Source: a virus. From it: a stretch of DNA of 22,412 nucleotides. The notes under the pieces are model-generated. The model was not told the origin of the DNA. It did not search any database and worked only from the letters and a program-made list of their open reading frames with translations. Of the stretch, positions 1,796 to 18,439 are shown one piece after another. The stretch spans positions 1-22,412 of IMG/VR virus record IMGVR_UViG_3300033571_001271. One strand, written 5' to 3'. How positions within the stretch are numbered: position 1 is the stretch's first letter; each line of letters begins with the position of its first letter. The position numbers and the translations under genes were made by a program.

Positions 1796-2821
1796 TTACC
1801 AAATCACTGTAACAGTAACGCGCCCTGCCGCGCCAGCACCCGATGTTCCGCCTAATGAACCACCGCCACCACCCGCAGGGGCAACGCCTGAACCAGCAAC
1901 ACCATTACCTGAACCCACTCCACCAGCCCCAGCAAACTGCGATGTTCCACCTACTGTTCCGCTGTTTGAGCCACCGCCAGCACCGCCACCGCCACCATAA
2001 ACTGCATCACCGCCATCACCACCTCTGCCACTAGATGTTCCAGCACCACCACCGCCACCGCCAAAAAATCCTGAACCGCCTTTGCCACCAATATTGCTAG
2101 TTGTGCCTGAAAAACCTTGTGCGCTACCAATTCCACCAACACCAGGTGTTGTTCCTTGTGCGCCACCACCACCACCGCCAATAGAACCTGTCCCGCCACT
2201 TACTCCAGTGTTTCCACCACCGCCACCTGTTCCTGCATTTTGGGATGTTGATGTGTTACTAAACATACCACCACCGCCACCTAAAGCTGATAAATACGAA
2301 CCAAATGTTGTTGTTCCACCTGCATCGCCTTGCACATTACTGGTTTTGGCTAAACCGCCAGCACCAATAGTCACTGTTTCAGTTGATGATAAATCAGACA
2401 ATCTGCGCCAAGTCCAAGCATATGTGCCACCACCACCGCCACCGCCGGCAGTTGTTCCGTTGTTTCTAGCACCTGAACCACCGCCGCCCCATGCTTGAAT
2501 TAAAACAATTGCAGTTGATGGCGCATTTGATGGTTTTGACCATGTTCCTGACGCATTAAATGTTTGAATATCTGTGCCGCCAACATTACCTGCAACCCAT
2601 GTCGTTCCATCAGATAACAATGCTTGCCCAGCCGTTCCCAATGCAACCATTTTTACTTGACCAGTGCCGTTCCCTACAATAACAGCATCGGCAGTCAATG
2701 TTGCCCTACCTGTCCCGCCATTTGCCGCTGGCGTTGCATTCACCAATCCTGTTGATGCGTCTAATTGACCTGATGTATTAACTTTGTTTGCCAGTTGGCT
2801 TAAATTAAATGCCTGTGTCAT
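1796..2821 (-). CDS. Polyglycine-rich tail fibre tip / adhesin
   Basis: The product is 341 aa. Residues 1-80 are fibre-like (ATPAANGGTGRATL near 29-42; GTAGQALLSDGTTWVAGN near 62-79). From about residue 88 there is a glycine-rich domain opening with FNASGTWSKP and closing with GRVTVTVIW, the usual beginning and end of phage glycine-rich domains. Between them are about eight runs of four to seven glycines, e.g. near 112, 126, 181, 199, 215, 254, 276 and 317, spaced by short variable loops. In T-even gp38 adhesins similar runs form a polyglycine-II sandwich with receptor-binding loops. By analogy this is likely a host-range determinant, but homology to gp38 is not shown. SD AGGGGAATAGC precedes the ATG. 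The gene lies directly after the tip gene. Confidence 0.8.
   Translation of the reverse strand: MTQAFNLSQLANKVNTSGQLDASTGLVNATPAANGGTGRATLTADAVIVGNGTGQVKMVALGTAGQALLSDGTTWVAGNVGGTDIQTFNASGTWSKPSNAPSTAIVLIQAWGGGGSGARNNGTTAGGGGGGGTYAWTWRRLSDLSSTETVTIGAGGLAKTSNVQGDAGGTTTFGSYLSALGGGGGMFSNTSTSQNAGTGGGGGNTGVSGGTGSIGGGGGGAQGTTPGVGGIGSAQGFSGTTSNIGGKGGSGFFGGGGGGAGTSSGRGGDGGDAVYGGGGGAGGGSNSGTVGGTSQFAGAGGVGSGNGVAGSGVAPAGGGGGSLGGTSGAGAAGRVTVTVIW
1855..2480 (-). repeat. GGN codon repeats (low-complexity DNA in the adhesin gene)
   Basis: The polyglycine runs are encoded by clustered GGN codons, giving repeated CCACCGCCACC-like stretches on the plus strand from about 1855 to 2480. Similar runs occur many times within 0.6 kb and could recombine or slip in steps of three, changing glycine-run length without breaking the frame. 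This is a coding low-complexity region, not a CRISPR or mobile element. Confidence 0.7.
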
Positions 2822-5800: not shown

Positions 5801-6199
5801 AATAGCATCACCACTGCCGCCACTCTCTGTATTAGTAACTTCACTCAAAGCAATAACCCAATAAATATTTTGGTTATTGTTTGTGATAGTCATGTCGGTA
5901 ATTATTCCACCAACAAAAGCCCTGCCGTAAACAACAGGTAATTTATTGTTTCCAGCTGGTGGTATTTGCTGACGATTGCCAATAGCTGGTTCTGCTCTAG
6001 GATTATTTGGGACATCAGGCGCAAATACTTTTGAAATAATTGTTGATGCGACCATGTTAATGGCGAATGCAATTGCCATCCCTGCGGCAGTTGAAGCAAA
6101 TGCGGCACTTGTTAATGCTGTAACAATAATTGAACCAACCGCAAAAACTGGCGTTGAATAAGTCATCCATAATAATGTCAGCAATATAAATCTAATCAT
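2831..6199 (-). CDS. Tail tip attachment protein (lambda gpJ-like central tip)
   Basis: The product is 1122 aa if it starts at ATG 6199, whose ATGATTAG overlaps the GNAT stop by 8 nt; an in-frame ATG at 6244 lies deep in the GNAT gene without an SD. The first ~65 residues are hydrophobic (MIRFILLTLLWMTYSTPVFA, then VTALTSAAFASTAAGMA). Next come LPVVYGRAFVGGIITDM, typical of this tip family, and a hub-like region with LQLEAGDIVTVTNANYGW, as in Phage-tail_3/TipJ proteins (L.pGD.V.VTN, then fRIskV). The C-terminal ~300 residues contain three similar beta units, each with an xNGxxL..xDY core (near 846, 1011 and 1083). It should form the central tip that contacts the receptor and opens for DNA release. 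Smaller or larger starts cannot be excluded. Confidence 0.85.
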   Translation of the reverse strand: MIRFILLTLLWMTYSTPVFAVGSIIVTALTSAAFASTAAGMAIAFAINMVASTIISKVFAPDVPNNPRAEPAIGNRQQIPPAGNNKLPVVYGRAFVGGIITDMTITNNNQNIYWVIALSEVTNTESGGSGDAITFGKVYWGGKLCRFDDPDNPYRVTALFDESTGDSQDVEGYLDIYLYSNGSYTPTNSTLNAIDVLSIPELTYKWDATKLMTNCAFAIVRLRYSQSRNTTQLNQTKFEVINSRTATGDCLLDYLTSTRYGAAIPLASIDTASIDALNAYSNQSIVYTPYGGGTSYQKRFTFNGTVDTAENIMPNLQQMADCCDCLLRYSEITGLWGVVVQTPYAFPVMNINDTNMVSAITISPIDIANSFNIVEVKFPDSSANDAFNSVTYDLAVINPSLLFPNEPVNKQSVSLSLVNNSVQAQYIANRFLEAAREDLQMTVEINYVGLQLEAGDIVTVTNANYGWTNKLFRISKVVQKFGDDGQVTAALTLMEYNPQVYDDINITEFTPSPNSGIGSPITFGSIPAPYISNSLPNAANPAFSVYVTTSSSGITQYAEIWYSAYKFPTETQRIFAGTTEINSNGNPYDINTLMPPVQLFNIPAGNWYFFSRMVNSIASSDFSPASEIYKWRPTTFQYTERYLSVAYADDENGNGFSLSPRNKIYYGLYNQSTQTPSLTPSDYKWYIAEPNFGDNIYLVYINRTGRRFSFDTDFAIYAAGTAAFVPSTATQFDPSIWSALEDGINYIDLDVRTGQLIETGTTTVGTGEIAIVNNNDGKIVASLQQFLDFGGAPTLTGSAATITIDIYGRVLGFTTPDNFYFSEQNFVATAGQTLFTPTARAAGYIAGQDLILQNGCLLDPSEYTETTTTFTLAVGATAGDQISCISMRAVSVAAYYENLHINVLSTGTNTVTWDSANMPYQYINVGDILTFANTGTPTQYTVTAVNYTTQTITFSTNPTATAGAVIYRYRAAGSSYPVFSRYTTTMTSAGSYTPTDWALHSGYELIFLNGTAVNEQDYDISGNTITNFPATVTGNLTIIQFGENNLTTPIGTPSNTVVYTVSGQATYSATFAANAFNLYANGVLLIEPSDYTLGSGSYTFSITPTNSTTVLLQQTFASAGAA

Positions 6200-6632
6200 G
6201 GCAAATCCAGTTTTCCTCAATTTTAACAAGCCCAAACTTTTCATATTTCATGTTTGGCGATGTTGTCAGTTTTGACAGTGTAAACATTTTGATTGTATTT
6301 GCATCTTTTAATGCTTTGGCATAATCTAAATATTTTTTTAACAATTTATATCCAATTGTTGTGTGTCTATGTTCAGGCTTAACAAACCAAGCCAATTCAT
6401 GCAAAACAAATGTTTTGTCGCACCATATTGCTGGCTGAATAATTCCAACAATCATTCCAACATCTTGTTCAATATATATAACACCGCGCCCAACAAGGAT
6501 TGAATCAATCAACGCGCTGATATATTCAACATTTTCCAAACTTTTATATTGCTTTATTGGAGATTCATCCCTAAACATCCGCAACATTTCAATTATTTGC
6601 GGCTTATCAAACTTGTTTGCTAATCTAATCAT
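6192..6632 (-). CDS. GNAT-family N-acetyltransferase in the tail module
   Basis: The product is 146 aa, a normal length for a single GNAT domain. It opens with MIRLANKFDKPQIIEMLRMF (beta1-alpha1), has a beta4 strand LHELAWFVKPEHR (78-89), then RHTTIGYKLLKKYL (89-102), which fits the acetyl-CoA pyrophosphate loop R/Q-x-x-G-x-G/A in degenerate form, and a C-terminal MKYEKFGLVKIEENW that fits motif B. It should transfer an acyl group from acyl-CoA to an amine; the substrate is unknown. It overlaps the hub gene stop by 1 nt and the tip gene start by 8 nt, so it is co-translated with tail-tip proteins. Possible roles are modifying a tip protein or a host target. The second loop glycine is replaced, so activity is not assured. 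Confidence 0.8.
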   Translation of the reverse strand: MIRLANKFDKPQIIEMLRMFRDESPIKQYKSLENVEYISALIDSILVGRGVIYIEQDVGMIVGIIQPAIWCDKTFVLHELAWFVKPEHRHTTIGYKLLKKYLDYAKALKDANTIKMFTLSKLTTSPNMKYEKFGLVKIEENWICHD

Positions 6633-12660: not shown

Positions 12661-12685
12661 AATAAGCCCCTTGCGGGGCATTTAT
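12661..12685 (-). terminator. Terminator-like hairpin after the second tail-tube gene
   Basis: On the minus strand GCCCC-GCAA-GGGGC forms a 5-bp GC stem with a GNRA-type tetraloop, flanked by AATAA and TTATT arms that can extend it with a small bulge, then TTATTAATTT. It starts at the stop of the second tube gene. It is short but GC-rich in an AT-rich setting, and fits a leaky intrinsic terminator that would lower expression of the 76-aa and later tail genes relative to the abundant tube proteins. Confidence 0.6.
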
Positions 12686-13203
12686 TAGTTGTTTGACCAT
12701 CCGTATTGATTACCGCGTGGGTGAACTGTGAATGTGCATTTCGCTTCCGCGCCGGGATTTGGGTCAATTTGGAATTGGCTTACACGACCATTGAACGCAT
12801 ATGCAATTGTGTTTGTTCCGTCAACAGCGGCAACAACAAATGTTCTATCAACAACACCACTATACGCATCAGAACGGATTTGCAATAAAGCTGTGTCCGC
12901 TGGATTCCATGCGGCAGTGATAGTCATTGAAGTTGGTGCAGATTGTGTTGGGATTTTATCGCTTTGGCGTGAACCAGCAACAGAATAGTTTGCCACTGCA
13001 TCATCCTGACCAAATGCAGGAATTGCCTCAACAGGAACTAAAACACCATTTGCGCCTGTGCCGTTTGCTGTTGTACCAACAATTGCGGCAACCTGTGCTG
13101 TCCAAACAGACAAGTTTGCAGTTGTTAATGGTGTTGGCGTTGCGGCTGATTGCATCCACAATGATGCTGAAAAGCCCGGTAAAATTTTATTTGGAACTGC
13201 CAT
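12685..13203 (-). CDS. Major tail (tube) protein, copy 2
   Basis: The product is 172 aa and is a close paralogue of the gene just upstream. From residue 58 to the end about 86% of positions match copy 1, including AIPAFGQDDAVANY and VAGSRQSDKIPTQSAPTSMT. The N-terminal 28 residues match at about 75%, but residues 29-57 form a different, longer Gly/Thr/Asn-rich segment. A tail-tube role is inferred from size, place between tail completion and chaperone genes, and tandem duplication. SD AAGGGGAATAATT gives strong initiation. DNA of the two copies differs at many synonymous sites, so the duplication is not recent. Confidence 0.8.
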   Translation of the reverse strand: MAVPNKILPGFSASLWMQSAATPTPLTTANLSVWTAQVAAIVGTTANGTGANGVLVPVEAIPAFGQDDAVANYSVAGSRQSDKIPTQSAPTSMTITAAWNPADTALLQIRSDAYSGVVDRTFVVAAVDGTNTIAYAFNGRVSQFQIDPNPGAEAKCTFTVHPRGNQYGWSNN

Positions 13204-13218
13204 AATTATTCCCCTTAA

Positions 13219-13713
13219 TTAAGCGTTATTGCACCAACCATATTGGTTGCCACGCGGATGAATTGTAAATGTGCATTTTGTTTCAGCACCCGGATTTGGG
13301 TCAATTTGGAATTGTGACACTCTGCCATTGAATGAATAATAAACAATGTTTGTGCCATCAGTTGCGGCAATAACAAAAGTGCGGTCAACAGTGCCGCTAT
13401 ATGCGTCAGCACGAATTTGCAAAATTACTGAATCGCTTGGATTCCAAGCCGCAGTAATTGTCATGGATGTTGGTGCAGACTGTGTTGGAATCTTGTCAGA
13501 TTGACGGCTTCCTGCCACGCCATAATTTGCAACCGCATCATCTTGTCCAAAAGCTGGGATTGCCTCAACATTTAATTGATTGCCTGACACTGCAATTGGA
13601 GAAACACTGCCAACAGTTGCAAGCTGTGTTGTTGTCAATGGTGTTGGTGTTGCACCTGATTGCGCATACATGGTTGCGCTAAATCCCGGTAATACTTTAT
13701 TTGGTAATGCCAT
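13219..13713 (-). CDS. Major tail (tube) protein, copy 1
   Basis: The product is 164 aa, beginning MALPNKVLPGFSATM. It is followed after 15 nt by its paralogue. Conserved core strings include VEAIPAFGQDDAVANY, NGRVSQFQIDPNPGA and IHPRGNQYGW. The variable part is residues 29-48, nine residues shorter than in copy 2. SD AAAGGAAATGAAAA precedes the ATG. Tail tubes of siphoviruses are usually hexameric rings of one protein; here two proteins could alternate, mix, or occupy different parts of the tube. Tail-tube identity rests on gene order and is not proved by a motif I recognise. Confidence 0.8.
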   Translation of the reverse strand: MALPNKVLPGFSATMYAQSGATPTPLTTTQLATVGSVSPIAVSGNQLNVEAIPAFGQDDAVANYGVAGSRQSDKIPTQSAPTSMTITAAWNPSDSVILQIRADAYSGTVDRTFVIAATDGTNIVYYSFNGRVSQFQIDPNPGAETKCTFTIHPRGNQYGWCNNA

Positions 13714-14175: not shown

Positions 14176-14516
14176 ATTGTCACCACTGGGTCATTTCTGT
14201 AACAACGCAAAATAACATGCTGTCTGTCATTTGTTTCAATTGCACCAGCGATTCGCCAATCCAAGTTGCGATATGTTAATGAATACAAGTTTTGGTTTTC
14301 CACAATGTCTTTCATCCACCTTGTAAAATTAAACTTAAATTCAATCAAATCAGCATAAACGCGATATTTTTCCGTAATTGAAACGGAATTTGACACTTCA
14401 CTGACAATAGCCATGCCATGAAATTTTAATGTTTTTATTGTTGATTGCTGTCCCAATGTATCAACACCAAAACTTAAATCAAAAACATCAACAGGTTCAT
14501 ATCTTGCGATTGTCAT
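14172..14516 (-). CDS. Head-tail adaptor / head closure protein
   Basis: The product is 114 aa, beta-rich. It has VYADLIEFKFNFTRWMKDIV, then LYSLTYRNLDWRIAGAIETN and RQHVILRCYR. This order recalls phage head-tail joining proteins (SPP1 gp16-type), where a central strand region ends in Wx(I)xG and a final ILRC strand. It overlaps the connector stop by one nt (TAATG) and the completion gene by 4 nt. It is expected to close the connector below the portal. Confidence 0.65.
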   Translation of the reverse strand: MTIARYEPVDVFDLSFGVDTLGQQSTIKTLKFHGMAIVSEVSNSVSITEKYRVYADLIEFKFNFTRWMKDIVENQNLYSLTYRNLDWRIAGAIETNDRQHVILRCYRNDPVVTI

Positions 14517-15157
14517 TACATCACCAAATCTTTATATGGTCGCAATAAAACATCCACGCCATATGGTATCTTTTGCAATTTTGTCAAAGTTGTTTCTGAC
14601 CGATTGTTATATAAATGCGTCAATAACAATAATCCAGCCTGTTTAATTACAGGATACTGTGACAATATACTTGGGTTTACAGTGTATTCAACAATCACTG
14701 GGTTTGTTCTTAATGTTGAAACATTGGATGGGAAACCACCGGAAACCACAACGCGATTTCCAGTTTGGTCATAAAAGTAATTGTTTGATGCCAAGGTCAC
14801 TAATACATTGTCAGAATTGTAATATTTGACAGCATTAATTACTGTTTGCCCCATTGATGTTTCAGGTAAATCCAAATTGGCTGGCGTGCTATATTGCCAA
14901 GGATTGCCATAATAAACACGATATGTTATTGAAAATATTGGTTTGCCCAAATAATCCTCAATGTGCATCCTTGTTGCTAAATCAAGCGTTTGCAATAAAT
15001 CATCTTGCGATTCATCACCATATAAATTTAATTGCTCTGTGATTTCAGCAAAGGTCAACCATTGCGTCTGAATGTCGCGTGTAACCTGTTCAATCTTTTC
15101 ATAATTGAACGGATTGCGATTTGACGCAAATGGAAGTGTGCCAATTTGGTTTGCCAT
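14516..15157 (-). CDS. Head-tail connector protein (HK97 gp6-like)
   Basis: The product is 213 aa. It has LLQTLDLATRMHIEDYLGKP (about 54-73), and near the C-terminus IKQAGLLLLTHLYNNRSETT then IPYGVDVLLRPYKDLVM. The pattern A..xIExYlGkpl, followed by A.lLLxxhlYxNR and iPxGVxxLLxPYr, is typical of gp6-like connectors that form a ring under the portal. The start is 2 nt after the second capsid gene stop. Confidence 0.88.
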   Translation of the reverse strand: MANQIGTLPFASNRNPFNYEKIEQVTRDIQTQWLTFAEITEQLNLYGDESQDDLLQTLDLATRMHIEDYLGKPIFSITYRVYYGNPWQYSTPANLDLPETSMGQTVINAVKYYNSDNVLVTLASNNYFYDQTGNRVVVSGGFPSNVSTLRTNPVIVEYTVNPSILSQYPVIKQAGLLLLTHLYNNRSETTLTKLQKIPYGVDVLLRPYKDLVM

Positions 15158-15159
15158 TA

Positions 15160-16209
15160 TTAAGCCCCAATCAAATAAACACCGGCGAATGGGTCACGAA
15201 CTGTGGAAACCATACGCTTTTCAGCCCAAAGGGTCACAAAACCGGGTGAAGTTTGGTCAAACATTTTGATTGTCATTTCCTCACCATCAGCAATGGTCAA
15301 GAATCTATCCCAATTTGCCAACACGCCTGACAGTTTTCCTGCGGCTGGTTCATCTAAATATGGGTTTGGAATTACTGGGAAACCCATCATAAATGCAACA
15401 GCACCACCATCATCATCGCCTGTTTCAACAAACATTGGTGCGCCACCAGTTGAACCTTTTAATTTACGCAATTGCTGAATCAGTTTTGGATGCAAATGCC
15501 ACGCTGTTGTATCCAGTGACCAGTATTGTGCTGGCAATAAATTTGCCGCATTAACAATGTCATCATAAGTAATTGCGGCGGCAGTGAAATCCTCTTTCAA
15601 AATAGTATGAATACCATTTGTGATTGCTGTGCCACTTGTGCCGTAACTTGCGGCTGATGTGCTTGTGTTGTAATAAGCTAAACCGCGCAAGCCATCAACG
15701 CCACCAGTTGTTGTCGTTGTTGAACCAGCTTGGTCATTGTTGATTGCCATTGAAGCGGCTTCAACAGCGGAAAATTCCAACATTAAATCATTTACAATTG
15801 CGGTTTCCAGTGCGTTCACATCGCTTAAAACGGCTGAACGAATTGGAAGTTGCGCAGAAATTACACGCATTGGAATTTGCCAAAATGCGGTATTGGTGTT
15901 TGGTGTTCCTGAATCCGGCGTGAATGTATAGCCGAATGGATTTGTTTGATTTGTTGCATTACCAGTTTTTGCCACGAATGAAACATCTGAACCTTTGGCA
16001 ATAATTTGGCGTGAACCCATGCGGAATGGATTTGCATAACGCAAAGCCGCAGTCGCATCGTCAAAGTAAATCCTACCACCGACACCTGAACCGCTACCAG
16101 TTAATAATGATGCCTCATCAACATCAATGGCTTCGGAAAGGCTGACAACGGATTGACCATTTTTCAACGCCTCTTGAATGCCTTTATAAATCTTTTGTTC
16201 AGTTTTCAT
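15160..16209 (-). CDS. Second major capsid protein homologue, without scaffold domain
   Basis: The product is 349 aa. It aligns with the mature part of the upstream capsid gene: LLTGSGSGVGGRIYFD (35-50) vs ALTGSGFNQGGRTGYD, ALRYANPFRMGSR vs ALRLANPLRGVSR, LMLEFSAVEAASMAINNDQA vs LLEFSQQEALSMVVNNDQG, and a C-terminal FDQTSPGFVTLWAEKRMVST vs YDQTAPGFITFFGEKRLASS. By eye the identity is about 40%. It keeps only ~35 residues in front of LTGSG, versus ~112 in copy 1, so the coiled-coil scaffold is missing. SD TAGGAAAAAGACC precedes the ATG. It could co-assemble with copy 1, form special capsomers such as vertices, or be an alternate capsid. Confidence 0.88.
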   Translation of the reverse strand: MKTEQKIYKGIQEALKNGQSVVSLSEAIDVDEASLLTGSGSGVGGRIYFDDATAALRYANPFRMGSRQIIAKGSDVSFVAKTGNATNQTNPFGYTFTPDSGTPNTNTAFWQIPMRVISAQLPIRSAVLSDVNALETAIVNDLMLEFSAVEAASMAINNDQAGSTTTTTGGVDGLRGLAYYNTSTSAASYGTSGTAITNGIHTILKEDFTAAAITYDDIVNAANLLPAQYWSLDTTAWHLHPKLIQQLRKLKGSTGGAPMFVETGDDDGGAVAFMMGFPVIPNPYLDEPAAGKLSGVLANWDRFLTIADGEEMTIKMFDQTSPGFVTLWAEKRMVSTVRDPFAGVYLIGA

Positions 16210-16235
16210 GGTCTTTTTCCTAAATCGTTAATAAA

Positions 16236-16261
16236 GGGGCAGGGGATTTTGTCCCCCGCCT
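16236..16261 (-). terminator. Hairpin between the two capsid genes
   Basis: On the minus strand the arms GGGGA and TCCCC (plus 16242-16246 and 16252-16256) pair around a 5-nt loop, and beyond an A/C mismatch GGC and GCC continue the stem for 3 bp. The stem is followed by CCTTTATT, a weak U-tract. It lies in the 62-nt gap between capsid copy 1 and copy 2. It could attenuate transcription, protect the upstream message, or set the ratio of the two proteins. Confidence 0.5.
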
Positions 16262-16271
16262 ATTCCTTTAA

Positions 16272-17624
16272 TTAGTTTGCTGTCGCTGTTGAACGATAGC
16301 GAACAATTGCGAATGGGTCTTGAATACTTGATGCCAAACGCTTTTCACCAAAGAATGTGATGAAACCCGGTGCAGTTTGGTCGTATCTACGCAGAACCAT
16401 GTTCAAGCGGTCAACGATTGTATGACCACGATTCCAGTCACCAAAATACATTGGATATAAGCTAGTTGTATCAGAACCAGTTGCAGTTGTGCCATTTGGA
16501 TTGTCCAAATATTTGTTCACAACAACATCAAAGCCCAACAATTTACCAACGATGCCATCGTAAACCAATGGATTCATGCGTTCAAACACTGGTGTGCCGT
16601 TGTCATCTACCAAGCCACGAATTTGTGACAAGAATACTGGGTTTACAACAAACTTTGTTGATTCACTCCAATATTGTTGTGGCAAGCTGTAAACGAAATT
16701 GACAATGTCTTTATAAGTAACATTTGCCGCTGTTGGGCTGTCACCATTGGTTGTCAATTGGTCGTATGTTGCAATGTTGTGCAAGCCGTCTGTTGATGCT
16801 GTGCCGGATGTGCCAAATGATGCAACGGATGTTGTGCCGCCTGTATAGGTTGAATTTGCGCCGGGATATTGGTCAAGTCCACGCAAACCATTTGAACCGC
16901 CATATGGCAATGTTGTTAAACCTTGGTCGTTGTTGACTACCATTGACAACGCTTCTTGTTGGCTAAATTCTAGCAACATATCAGAAACAACATTTGCCTC
17001 TAAACCATCAACGTCATCCAAAGCCGCTGTTCGGATTGGGAATTGAACATTTAGGTCTTTAAGAACTAATTGCCAAATGCTTGTATTTTCAGTTGTGTTT
17101 GCGCCATTGTTGTTAATAGCATAGCCCCAACCAGCACCAGCATTGCCAACCTTTGCGCGGAACTGGTAAACAGAACCATCAGTTGAAACATTACGGGAAA
17201 CACCACGCAATGGGTTTGCCAAACGCAATGCAACAAATACTGGGTCATAACCAGTGCGACCACCTTGATTGAAACCTGAACCTGTCAATGCTGATGCTTC
17301 GGTAACAAATGCTTGATGTTCAGCTTCATCAGCAAACAATTGCAATTCTTTTTCCTTGCGACCACCATTTTTAACATAGTCAGACAATGCTTCTTTAACG
17401 CGGCGGTTTACATCACTGCCAATTGTCTTTGCAACCTTGATGATGCTAGGTGCTTGAACTGATGCCATCTTTGCTTCCAAAGCGGCTACTTTTTCCTCAA
17501 AAGAAACTACTTTTTCATCCAATTTTGCTTCAATTTCTGTTTTAACAGAATCAATTTTTTCGGCAGTTTTGGATTCAATAGTCGTTTCAATCTCATTTAA
17601 TTTTTCAATGATTTTTTCAGACAT
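16272..17624 (-). CDS. Major capsid protein (HK97 fold), with N-terminal scaffold-like domain
   Basis: The product is 450 aa. Residues 1-60 are a charged coiled coil (EKLNEIETTIESKTAEKIDS; EEKVAALEAKMASVQ), typical of the delta or scaffold domain of HK97-type capsids. Residues 60-110 form a basic linker (TIGSDVNRRVKEALSDYVKN), and the mature part starts around SALTGSGFNQGGRTGYDPVF. The mature core ends with YDQTAPGFITFFGEKRLASS and IQDPFAIVRYR. The delta domain is expected to be cut by the prohead protease encoded just upstream. The exact cleavage site is not determined. SD AAGGAATAATC overlaps the protease end; the gap is 2 nt. Confidence 0.92.
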   Translation of the reverse strand: MSEKIIEKLNEIETTIESKTAEKIDSVKTEIEAKLDEKVVSFEEKVAALEAKMASVQAPSIIKVAKTIGSDVNRRVKEALSDYVKNGGRKEKELQLFADEAEHQAFVTEASALTGSGFNQGGRTGYDPVFVALRLANPLRGVSRNVSTDGSVYQFRAKVGNAGAGWGYAINNNGANTTENTSIWQLVLKDLNVQFPIRTAALDDVDGLEANVVSDMLLEFSQQEALSMVVNNDQGLTTLPYGGSNGLRGLDQYPGANSTYTGGTTSVASFGTSGTASTDGLHNIATYDQLTTNGDSPTAANVTYKDIVNFVYSLPQQYWSESTKFVVNPVFLSQIRGLVDDNGTPVFERMNPLVYDGIVGKLLGFDVVVNKYLDNPNGTTATGSDTTSLYPMYFGDWNRGHTIVDRLNMVLRRYDQTAPGFITFFGEKRLASSIQDPFAIVRYRSTATAN

Positions 17625-17626
17625 GA

Positions 17627-18439
17627 TTATTCCTTAATGAACTTGTTTAATTTATTCAGCAATTCGCGTTCCTCAATAGCACGCAAGATTGCATCCTCGG
17701 TGGCTTCCGCATCAGAATCTCTCTGATTCGGTGCATTTTCAATAGGCGTTTCAACAACATCTCGTTGTTCCAACACTTTTTTGAATACGGATGCGGCAAC
17801 CACCGCGTTCCGAACTGAAACCCCTGCATCTCGCAAAGTGCTTTCCAGTGTTCTTAAATCCAGCGAACCATCTTGCTGGAAATATTCTAATTTCTTGATA
17901 TTGGCTTCCAAGTTGTTTGGTTGCATAACGATGGACACTTCGCGCAAACCACCTTTAGTGATTTGAAAATATCCTTCATCAAACTTTTCAGGTTCATCAT
18001 CGTATGCCATACCAGCTTCATCAACCATTTGCCATTCATCAGCATATGCGCCAACAGAAACACCGCCAACCATATTTGGTGATTCCTTCATAATGGTATA
18101 AAGGTCACGACCCGCAGTTGTATTTGTGAAAATGCGACCTTTGCCACTCATGCCTTTATCGTCAAATTCAAATGATGTCCATTCGCCCACTGGCAATGAT
18201 TCATCATCGTGTTGGAAATACATTGGCAATGGCTTGCCTGTTGCTTCCAATCCTTTTGCCCATTCCATAAATGGTTCTGCAACATAAAAGAATCGCCTGC
18301 CGTCTGCGCCTTCTCGTGCGCCCCATGTTGTGAATACTGCCTCAATGTGTCCGCTTTCGCCACTGGCTTCATCGGCACTGATGCCCAATTCTACTTTTGA
18401 TTCATAAAAGAACCGAAAGTCTTTCAATTCGCTAGTCAT
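17627..18439 (-). CDS. Prohead protease (HK97 family)
   Basis: The product is 270 aa. It should cleave the capsid scaffold domain and itself inside the prohead. The N-terminal strand is EAVFTTWGAREGADGRRFFY. Catalytic candidates are H77 in PMYFQHDDESLPVGEW, S128 in MVGGVSVGAYADEW and E167 in GGLREVSIVMQPNNLEA; this His...GxSxG...LxEvSxVxxPxN order is typical. The C-terminal ~90 residues are charged and helical, perhaps the self-removed part. It starts inside the 37-aa ORF (8-nt overlap) and ends 2 nt before the capsid gene. Confidence 0.92.
   Translation of the reverse strand: MTSELKDFRFFYESKVELGISADEASGESGHIEAVFTTWGAREGADGRRFFYVAEPFMEWAKGLEATGKPLPMYFQHDDESLPVGEWTSFEFDDKGMSGKGRIFTNTTAGRDLYTIMKESPNMVGGVSVGAYADEWQMVDEAGMAYDDEPEKFDEGYFQITKGGLREVSIVMQPNNLEANIKKLEYFQQDGSLDLRTLESTLRDAGVSVRNAVVAASVFKKVLEQRDVVETPIENAPNQRDSDAEATEDAILRAIEERELLNKLNKFIKE

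What the first reader, a model, noticed from the sequence alone, without database searches (positions are those of the whole stretch)
15160..17624. Two adjacent major capsid homologues, only the first with a scaffold domain
Copy 1 (450 aa) has an N-terminal coiled-coil scaffold; copy 2 (349 aa) starts about 77 residues later in the alignment and lacks it, but keeps the capsid core (about 40% identity by eye) including the DQTxPGF..EKR ending. Both have strong SD sites and intact frames. T4 uses paralogues gp23/gp24 for hexamers and vertices; HK97-type siphoviruses usually have one capsid gene. Copy 2 could be a vertex or minor capsomer protein that uses the copy-1 scaffold.
Basis: partly seen in the sequence, partly recalled or inferred. 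Interest (0 to 1): 0.78.

Follow-up and report, generated by a model that had tools for sequence, protein, structure and literature searches.

The report
Conserved paired capsid genes in phages
A large group of tailed phages always carries two neighbouring, related capsid genes, the second lacking the assembly (scaffold) domain and sitting behind a conserved RNA hairpin, which suggests a dedicated minor shell protein, such as a corner (vertex) protein, that seems not to have been described.

Summary
MCP1 (450 aa, with a roughly 108-residue helical delta/scaffold-like region) and MCP2 (349 aa, lacking it) are adjacent, 42% identical over 344 residues, and both match Phage_capsid. Both are predicted to have the HK97 fold, with the RcGTA capsid as best structural hit.

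The pair is not a local oddity. In 216 non-redundant loci, all 198 MCP1 genes with enough downstream sequence have MCP2, and all 203 MCP2 genes with enough upstream sequence have MCP1. The copies form two separate clades, show no gene conversion, and are under purifying selection (median dN/dS about 0.06-0.2). The cultured relative, Methylophilaceae phage P19250A, has the pair, with MCP2 annotated "hypothetical".

New here: nearly every MCP1-MCP2 gap carries a strong terminator/attenuator-like hairpin (83 of 83 testable unique gaps at or below -10 kcal/mol). Stem sequences differ between clades. MCP2 is therefore probably made in smaller amounts than MCP1. MCP2 also lacks three loops (23 residues) in the predicted A-domain.

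Best reading: MCP2 is a substoichiometric, co-assembling capsomer protein, most likely the pentamer (vertex) subunit, working like T4 gp24 but of separate origin. Vertex placement is inferred, not shown.

The parts
16272..17624 (-). MCP1: HK97-type major capsid protein, 450 aa, with N-terminal delta/scaffold-like region
   Evidence: Pfam PF05065 8.6e-27; phrog_10 major head protein 4e-33; AF2 model best hit RcGTA capsid 6tb9 E 7.3e-17
17301..17624 (-). MCP1 residues 1-108: predicted helical delta/scaffold-like region, absent from MCP2
   Evidence: helices 2-37, 42-55, 68-85, 100-112 in the model, low pLDDT; MCP2 alignment begins at MCP1 E109
17631..17635 (-). SD-like AAGGA of MCP1, 6 nt before ATG
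   Evidence: sequence
16238..16260 (-). intergenic hairpin GGCGGGGGACAAAATCCCCTGCC followed by CCTTTATTAA: attenuator/terminator-like
   Evidence: pattern scan; hairpin kept in 83/83 testable unique MCP1-MCP2 gaps at or below -10 kcal/mol and 37/37 in a second clade
16218..16221 (-). SD-like AGGA of MCP2, 8 nt before ATG
   Evidence: sequence
15160..16209 (-). MCP2: capsid paralogue, 349 aa, without the scaffold domain
   Evidence: 42% identity to MCP1; PF05065 3.3e-15; AF2 model best hit 6tb9 E 6.1e-17
16117..16209 (-). MCP2 residues 1-31: short N-terminal extension before the motif shared with MCP1 (E-A-S-x-L-T-G-S-G)
   Evidence: E32 invariant in MCP2, E109 invariant in MCP1; possible prohead protease site, inferred only
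16842..16865 (-). MCP1 254-261, predicted A-domain loop absent from MCP2 family-wide
   Evidence: joint alignment of 56 pairs
16737..16757 (-). MCP1 290-296, predicted A-domain loop absent from MCP2 family-wide
16467..16490 (-). MCP1 379-386, predicted A-domain loop absent from MCP2 family-wide
17627..18439 (-). S78 prohead protease, 2 nt upstream of MCP1
   Evidence: PF04586 3.9e-10
14516..15157 (-). head-tail adaptor Ad1, 2 nt downstream of MCP2
   Evidence: phrog_40 5.9e-11

Best explanation
MCP1 and MCP2 come from a single old duplication of a delta-domain (HK97/RcGTA-type) major capsid gene. MCP1 keeps the ancestral job: its N-terminal delta domain scaffolds prohead assembly, is then removed by the neighbouring S78 protease, and the core forms most of the shell (hexamers). 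MCP2 has no scaffold domain, so it should enter the prohead only by co-assembly with MCP1 through shared inter-capsomer contacts. A hairpin at the 3' end of MCP1 lowers transcription into, or stabilises mRNA upstream of, MCP2, so MCP2 is made in smaller amounts. It then fills a minor, specialised position, most likely the pentameric vertices (about 55 of 415 subunits if T=7), as gp24 does in T4. Shown: paralogy, predicted fold, universal linkage, purifying selection, hairpin, divergent predicted A-domain. Inferred: lower expression, virion incorporation, vertex placement, cleavage.
For: Homology 42%, 1e-72. HK97 fold predicted for both, same best hit RcGTA 6tb9. Same order portal-protease-MCP1-MCP2-Ad1 in surveyed loci. 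No exception among 198 MCP1 and 203 MCP2 loci with room; the loci were fetched with MCP1 alone, so MCP2 presence was not selected for. Median dN/dS 0.06-0.2 for both. Two clades, one change each. MCP1-MCP2 identity within genomes 43.3% against 43.0% between genomes, so no gene conversion. Distances of the two copies correlate, Mantel r = 0.46, above all 2000 permutations. Hairpin in 83/83 plus 37/37 unique gaps, with 4 or more T in the 9 nt after the stem in 61/83. The three MCP1-only loops lie in the predicted A-domain, while the N-arm is the best-kept region between copies (72% of consensus positions the same). MCP2 evolves faster than MCP1 (mean identity 62% against 75%). T4 precedent: gp23 hexamers, gp24 pentamers (PMC3012670).
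Against: No virion proteomics, stoichiometry or complex prediction was available. Single-MCP relatives also carry a hairpin right after the capsid gene, so the hairpin may simply end the MCP1 message and damp everything downstream rather than tune MCP2. The A-domain difference could be insertions in MCP1 rather than losses in MCP2. HK97-type shells normally form both capsomers from one protein, so a vertex protein is not required. MCP1 and MCP2 trees are only partly congruent. Models have modest confidence (pLDDT 66.8 and 73.6).
Confidence: 0.5

Rival explanations
1. MCP2 co-assembles within hexamers (hetero-capsomers, or a set class of hexamers), thinning out the scaffold domains inside the prohead rather than marking the vertices.
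For: Fold and likely inter-capsomer surfaces are shared. Lack of a delta domain would dilute scaffold mass. Both copies are always linked.
Against: The hairpin suggests unequal expression. The predicted A-domain, which packs around the capsomer axis, is among the less similar regions (34-52% of consensus positions the same), which argues weakly against mixing in one capsomer.
Confidence: 0.2
2. MCP2 is a minor capsid-like protein at one special site (portal-proximal or head-completion) or is added after maturation, rather than at all 11 vertices.
For: The gene directly precedes Ad1 with a 2-nt gap. No scaffold domain, so not needed for prohead nucleation.
Against: The full predicted HK97 fold argues for a regular capsomer position. 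No known example was met in the library searches.
Confidence: 0.12
3. The hairpin reflects only transcript end protection or general damping of tail genes, and MCP2 is simply a second general-purpose capsid protein interchangeable with MCP1.
For: Hairpin also present after the single MCP in D14E, ctuI7215 and Bcep176.
Against: No gene conversion, separate clades, family-wide diagnostic indels and unequal rates indicate distinct constrained roles.
Confidence: 0.1
4. MCP2 is not a virion protein (a regulatory, decoy or inhibitory capsid-like protein).
For: Nothing direct; MCP2 is annotated hypothetical in P19250A.
Against: Predicted HK97 fold, purifying selection, head-module location and no loss in any of 198 loci with room.
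Confidence: 0.05

Closest known systems
T4 gp23/gp24 (hexamer protein and pentameric vertex protein)
   Same: Two HK97-fold paralogues, one forming hexamers and one the vertices, as proposed here (PMC3012670).
   Different: No match to a PHROG named as a T4-type vertex protein. Here a delta-type scaffold region is present only in copy 1, whereas T4 uses a separate scaffold core. The family has an HK97/RcGTA-type head module. Vertex role unproven.
RcGTA capsid protein Rcc01687 (6tb9)
   Same: Best structural hit for both copies and the only strong PDB sequence hit of the MCP1 profile.
   Different: RcGTA builds hexamers and pentamers from one protein that bends at the N-arm, core helix and E-loop (PMC7296036); this family has two.
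HK97 gp5
   Same: N-terminal delta-like region of about 100 residues, neighbouring S78 protease, same predicted fold.
   Different: HK97 has one capsid gene; here a delta-less paralogue follows.
Methylophilaceae phage P19250A genes 0005 and 0006
   Same: Same tandem pair, 63.7% and 69.0% identical to MCP1 and MCP2; same gene order.
   Different: Second gene annotated only as hypothetical; no structural work found.

Membership tests
HK97-fold major capsid proteins (PF05065) | Profile match above curated cut-off | tested here: met
   94.7 and 56.7 bits against 24.2
HK97-fold major capsid proteins (PF05065) | HK97 fold | tested here: met
   Foldseek E 7.3e-17 and 6.1e-17 to 6tb9, on predicted models of modest confidence
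HK97-fold major capsid proteins (PF05065) | Forms the virion shell | not testable with these tools
   needs virion proteomics or cryo-EM
HK97/RcGTA-type delta-domain capsid proteins (MCP1) | N-terminal helical delta/scaffold region | tested here: met
   residues 1-108 modelled as helices, low pLDDT
HK97/RcGTA-type delta-domain capsid proteins (MCP2) | N-terminal helical delta/scaffold region | tested here: not met
   only 31 residues before the shared motif
T4 gp24-type vertex proteins (MCP2) | Adjacent paralogue of the major capsid protein | tested here: met
T4 gp24-type vertex proteins (MCP2) | Sequence membership in the T4 capsid/vertex family | tested here: not met
   PHROG matches are phrog_10 and phrog_15928 only; so not filed as a gp24 member, only as working like it
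T4 gp24-type vertex proteins (MCP2) | Substoichiometric to the main capsid protein | tested here: inconclusive
   hairpin between the genes suggests it; no protein data
T4 gp24-type vertex proteins (MCP2) | Occupies the pentamers | not testable with these tools
   no complex prediction or map available
Intrinsic terminator/attenuator (MCP1-MCP2 gap) | GC-rich stem followed by U-run | tested here: met
   61/83 unique gaps have 4 or more T in the 9 nt after the stem; the rest have the stem with a weaker tail. Termination itself not tested

The most novel reading that the evidence does not exclude
A large clade of siphovirus-type phages builds a two-protein HK97 shell in which only the main protein carries the scaffold domain, and a scaffold-less paralogue, its dose set by a conserved attenuator hairpin, is the obligatory vertex subunit: a gp23/gp24-like division of labour that arose independently in the HK97/RcGTA line.
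Probability: 0.4. Interest if true: 0.75.

Novelty: new variant of a known kind. Interest (0 to 1): 0.6.

Why it matters
Why some capsids need a separate vertex protein while HK97-type capsids do not is an old question in virus assembly. T4 gp24 is thought to be a recent, bypassable addition (PMC3012670). Here is an apparently independent and much more stable case: not one loss among the 198 MCP1 loci with room to see MCP2, in simple phages (P19250A is 38.7 kb) with a cultured representative. It would let one ask whether a scaffold on only part of the subunits is enough, how subunit dosage is set, and what makes a vertex protein indispensable. It also corrects the annotation of a "hypothetical" protein across many environmental genomes.

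Tried and rejected
Degenerating copy: rejected by dN/dS, intact frames and no absence. Assembly or sequencing artefact: rejected, pair present in 207 of 216 non-redundant loci and in a cultured phage. Recent tandem duplication: rejected, MCP1-MCP2 identity is the same within and between genomes. MCP2 N-terminal extensions in many loci (ATGA overlap starts, apparent gaps of -4 to about -80): mostly rejected as real starts, because the hairpin is read in frame there and an SD-bearing start follows it. Prophage relatives in a sample of 274 genomes of one class: none beyond the seed MAG. GenBank phages: only P19250A carries the pair at close range. PDB profile search with MCP2 alone: no hit. Literature searches for two paralogous capsid proteins in HK97-type phages gave T4 and jumbo-phage papers, unrelated viruses, and one annotation of two capsid ORFs in Bacillus phage B450T, whose sequences were not checked. 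L018 and L117 insertions between the genes: homing-endonuclease-like ORFs, not part of the system.

Full report
OBSERVATION. The window is a 22,412-base virus record. On the minus strand the order is terminase large subunit, portal, S78 prohead protease, MCP1, MCP2, head-tail adaptor Ad1, tail genes. MCP1 (16272-17624, 450 aa) and MCP2 (15160-16209, 349 aa) are 42% identical over 344 residues, E = 1e-72. Both pass the Pfam Phage_capsid cut-off and match phrog_10, major head protein.

FOLD. AlphaFold2 models built from alignments of 61 MCP1 and 66 MCP2 relatives have mean pLDDT 66.8 and 73.6. Against the PDB both find the RcGTA capsid 6tb9 first (E 7.3e-17 and 6.1e-17), then HK97 and relatives. 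MCP1 residues 1-112 are modelled as helices, as expected of a delta/scaffold domain, but at low confidence. MCP2 has about 31 residues before the shared E-A-S-x-L-T-G-S-G motif.

HOW WIDE. The only close relative among GenBank phages is Methylophilaceae phage P19250A. Its genes 0005 ("gene transfer agent capsid protein") and 0006 ("hypothetical protein") are the same pair. Five MAG contigs also carry it. After removing duplicates there are 216 loci; 207 hold both genes. All 198 MCP1 genes with at least 1200 nt downstream have MCP2, and all 203 MCP2 genes with at least 400 nt upstream have MCP1. The loci were chosen by MCP1 alone, so the linkage is not an effect of selection. Only the best 80 of each scan were examined.

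EVOLUTION. In a quick tree of 56 pairs plus three distant single-MCP phages, MCP1 and MCP2 each fall on one side of a branch (SH-aLRT 75 and 89), consistent with one duplication before the family diversified. The outgroups are very distant, so the root position is uncertain. MCP1-MCP2 identity is 43.3% within genomes and 43.0% between them, so there is no gene conversion. MCP2 evolves faster (mean identity 62% against 75%). Pairwise dN/dS (NG86) medians are 0.06-0.15 for MCP1 and 0.07-0.20 for MCP2; pairs are not independent, but nothing suggests relaxed selection. Distances of the two copies correlate (Mantel r = 0.46, above all 2000 permutations), but imperfectly, so some exchange between lineages is likely.

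HAIRPIN. The genes on either side abut with 2-nt gaps, but MCP1 and MCP2 are separated by about 38-77 nt in most loci. In this gap lies a GC-rich hairpin, in the window at 16260-16238. Among 84 unique gaps, 83 were long enough to test: all fold at or below -10 kcal/mol (median -19.3), 80 beat 95% of mononucleotide shuffles, and 61 have 4 or more T in the 9 nt after the stem. A second clade gives 37 of 37. Stem sequences differ while pairing is kept, for example GGGCAGAGCAATCTGCCC in L098 and GGGCGGAGCAATCCGCCC in L146. Single-MCP phages D14E, ctuI7215 and Bcep176 also have a hairpin just after their capsid gene. So the hairpin probably belonged to the ancestral capsid gene's 3' end, with MCP2 now on its downstream, low side. 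From general knowledge, T7 also has a partial terminator after its capsid gene. Reduced MCP2 expression is inferred, not measured.

SHAPE DIFFERENCES. Across 56 pairs MCP2 lacks three stretches of MCP1 (254-261, 290-296, 379-386; 23 residues), all between the spine helix and the P-domain strands, that is in the predicted A-domain, and has about 3 extra residues in the E-loop. Domain limits are read from the predicted secondary structure and general knowledge of the HK97 fold. The N-arm is the most similar region (72% of consensus positions the same) and the third A-domain part the least (34%). In an HK97 capsomer the A-domain surrounds the 5- or 6-fold axis, so divergence there, with shared N-arm motifs, fits a subunit used in a different capsomer. 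It cannot be said whether MCP1 gained or MCP2 lost these loops. E109 of MCP1 and E32 of MCP2 are invariant; a common prohead-protease site is possible but untested.

MECHANISM AND RIVALS. The best reading is a minor capsomer protein that cannot scaffold itself, joins MCP1 proheads, and most likely forms the pentamers, as gp24 does in T4 (PMC3012670). RcGTA shows how a single protein otherwise bends at N-arm, core helix and E-loop to fit pentamers (PMC7296036); MCP2 could be a dedicated solution to the same problem. Mixed hexamers, a portal-proximal role, an interchangeable copy and a non-virion role remain possible, in decreasing order.

COMPARISON AND NOVELTY. It works like gp23/gp24 but is not a member of that family by sequence. 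No paper in the searched library was found to describe this pair; the original P19250A paper was not among those read. Two paralogous HK97-fold capsid proteins are a known kind; scaffold on one only, in a small HK97/RcGTA-type phage, with an attenuator-like hairpin between them and complete retention, appears to be a new variant.

Noticed in passing
window 12685-13203 and 13219-13713: A second tandem duplication: two major tail proteins, 73% identical. Also seen in L013, L018, L022 and L053, while only one was found in P19250A. It looks much younger than the capsid duplication.
   Followed up: partly
L024:5611-5940, L027:4740-5070: In these two loci MCP2 carries an extra N-terminal domain of about 105 aa; in L024 it matches phrog_2859, unknown function, E 1.2e-26.
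   Followed up: partly
L018:5462-6004, L117:5815-6528: Homing-endonuclease-like ORF inserted between MCP1 and MCP2 (L018: phrog_314, E 5e-15; L117 similar by eye).
   Followed up: partly
L244:2-1052: MCP1 is split into two ORFs (143 and 170 aa) upstream of an intact MCP2.
   Followed up: no
window 6192-6632: Acetyltransferase-like gene (phrog_1249, E 1.5e-15) inside the tail module.
   Followed up: no
window 1796-2821: Very glycine-rich C-terminal region in a tail-end protein, possibly a tail-fibre adhesin tip.
   Followed up: no
MCP1 and MCP2 trees: The window's MCP1 groups with L089, L097 and L158 but its MCP2 with L001, L139 and L155, suggesting that MCP1 and MCP2 alleles are sometimes exchanged separately.
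   Followed up: partly
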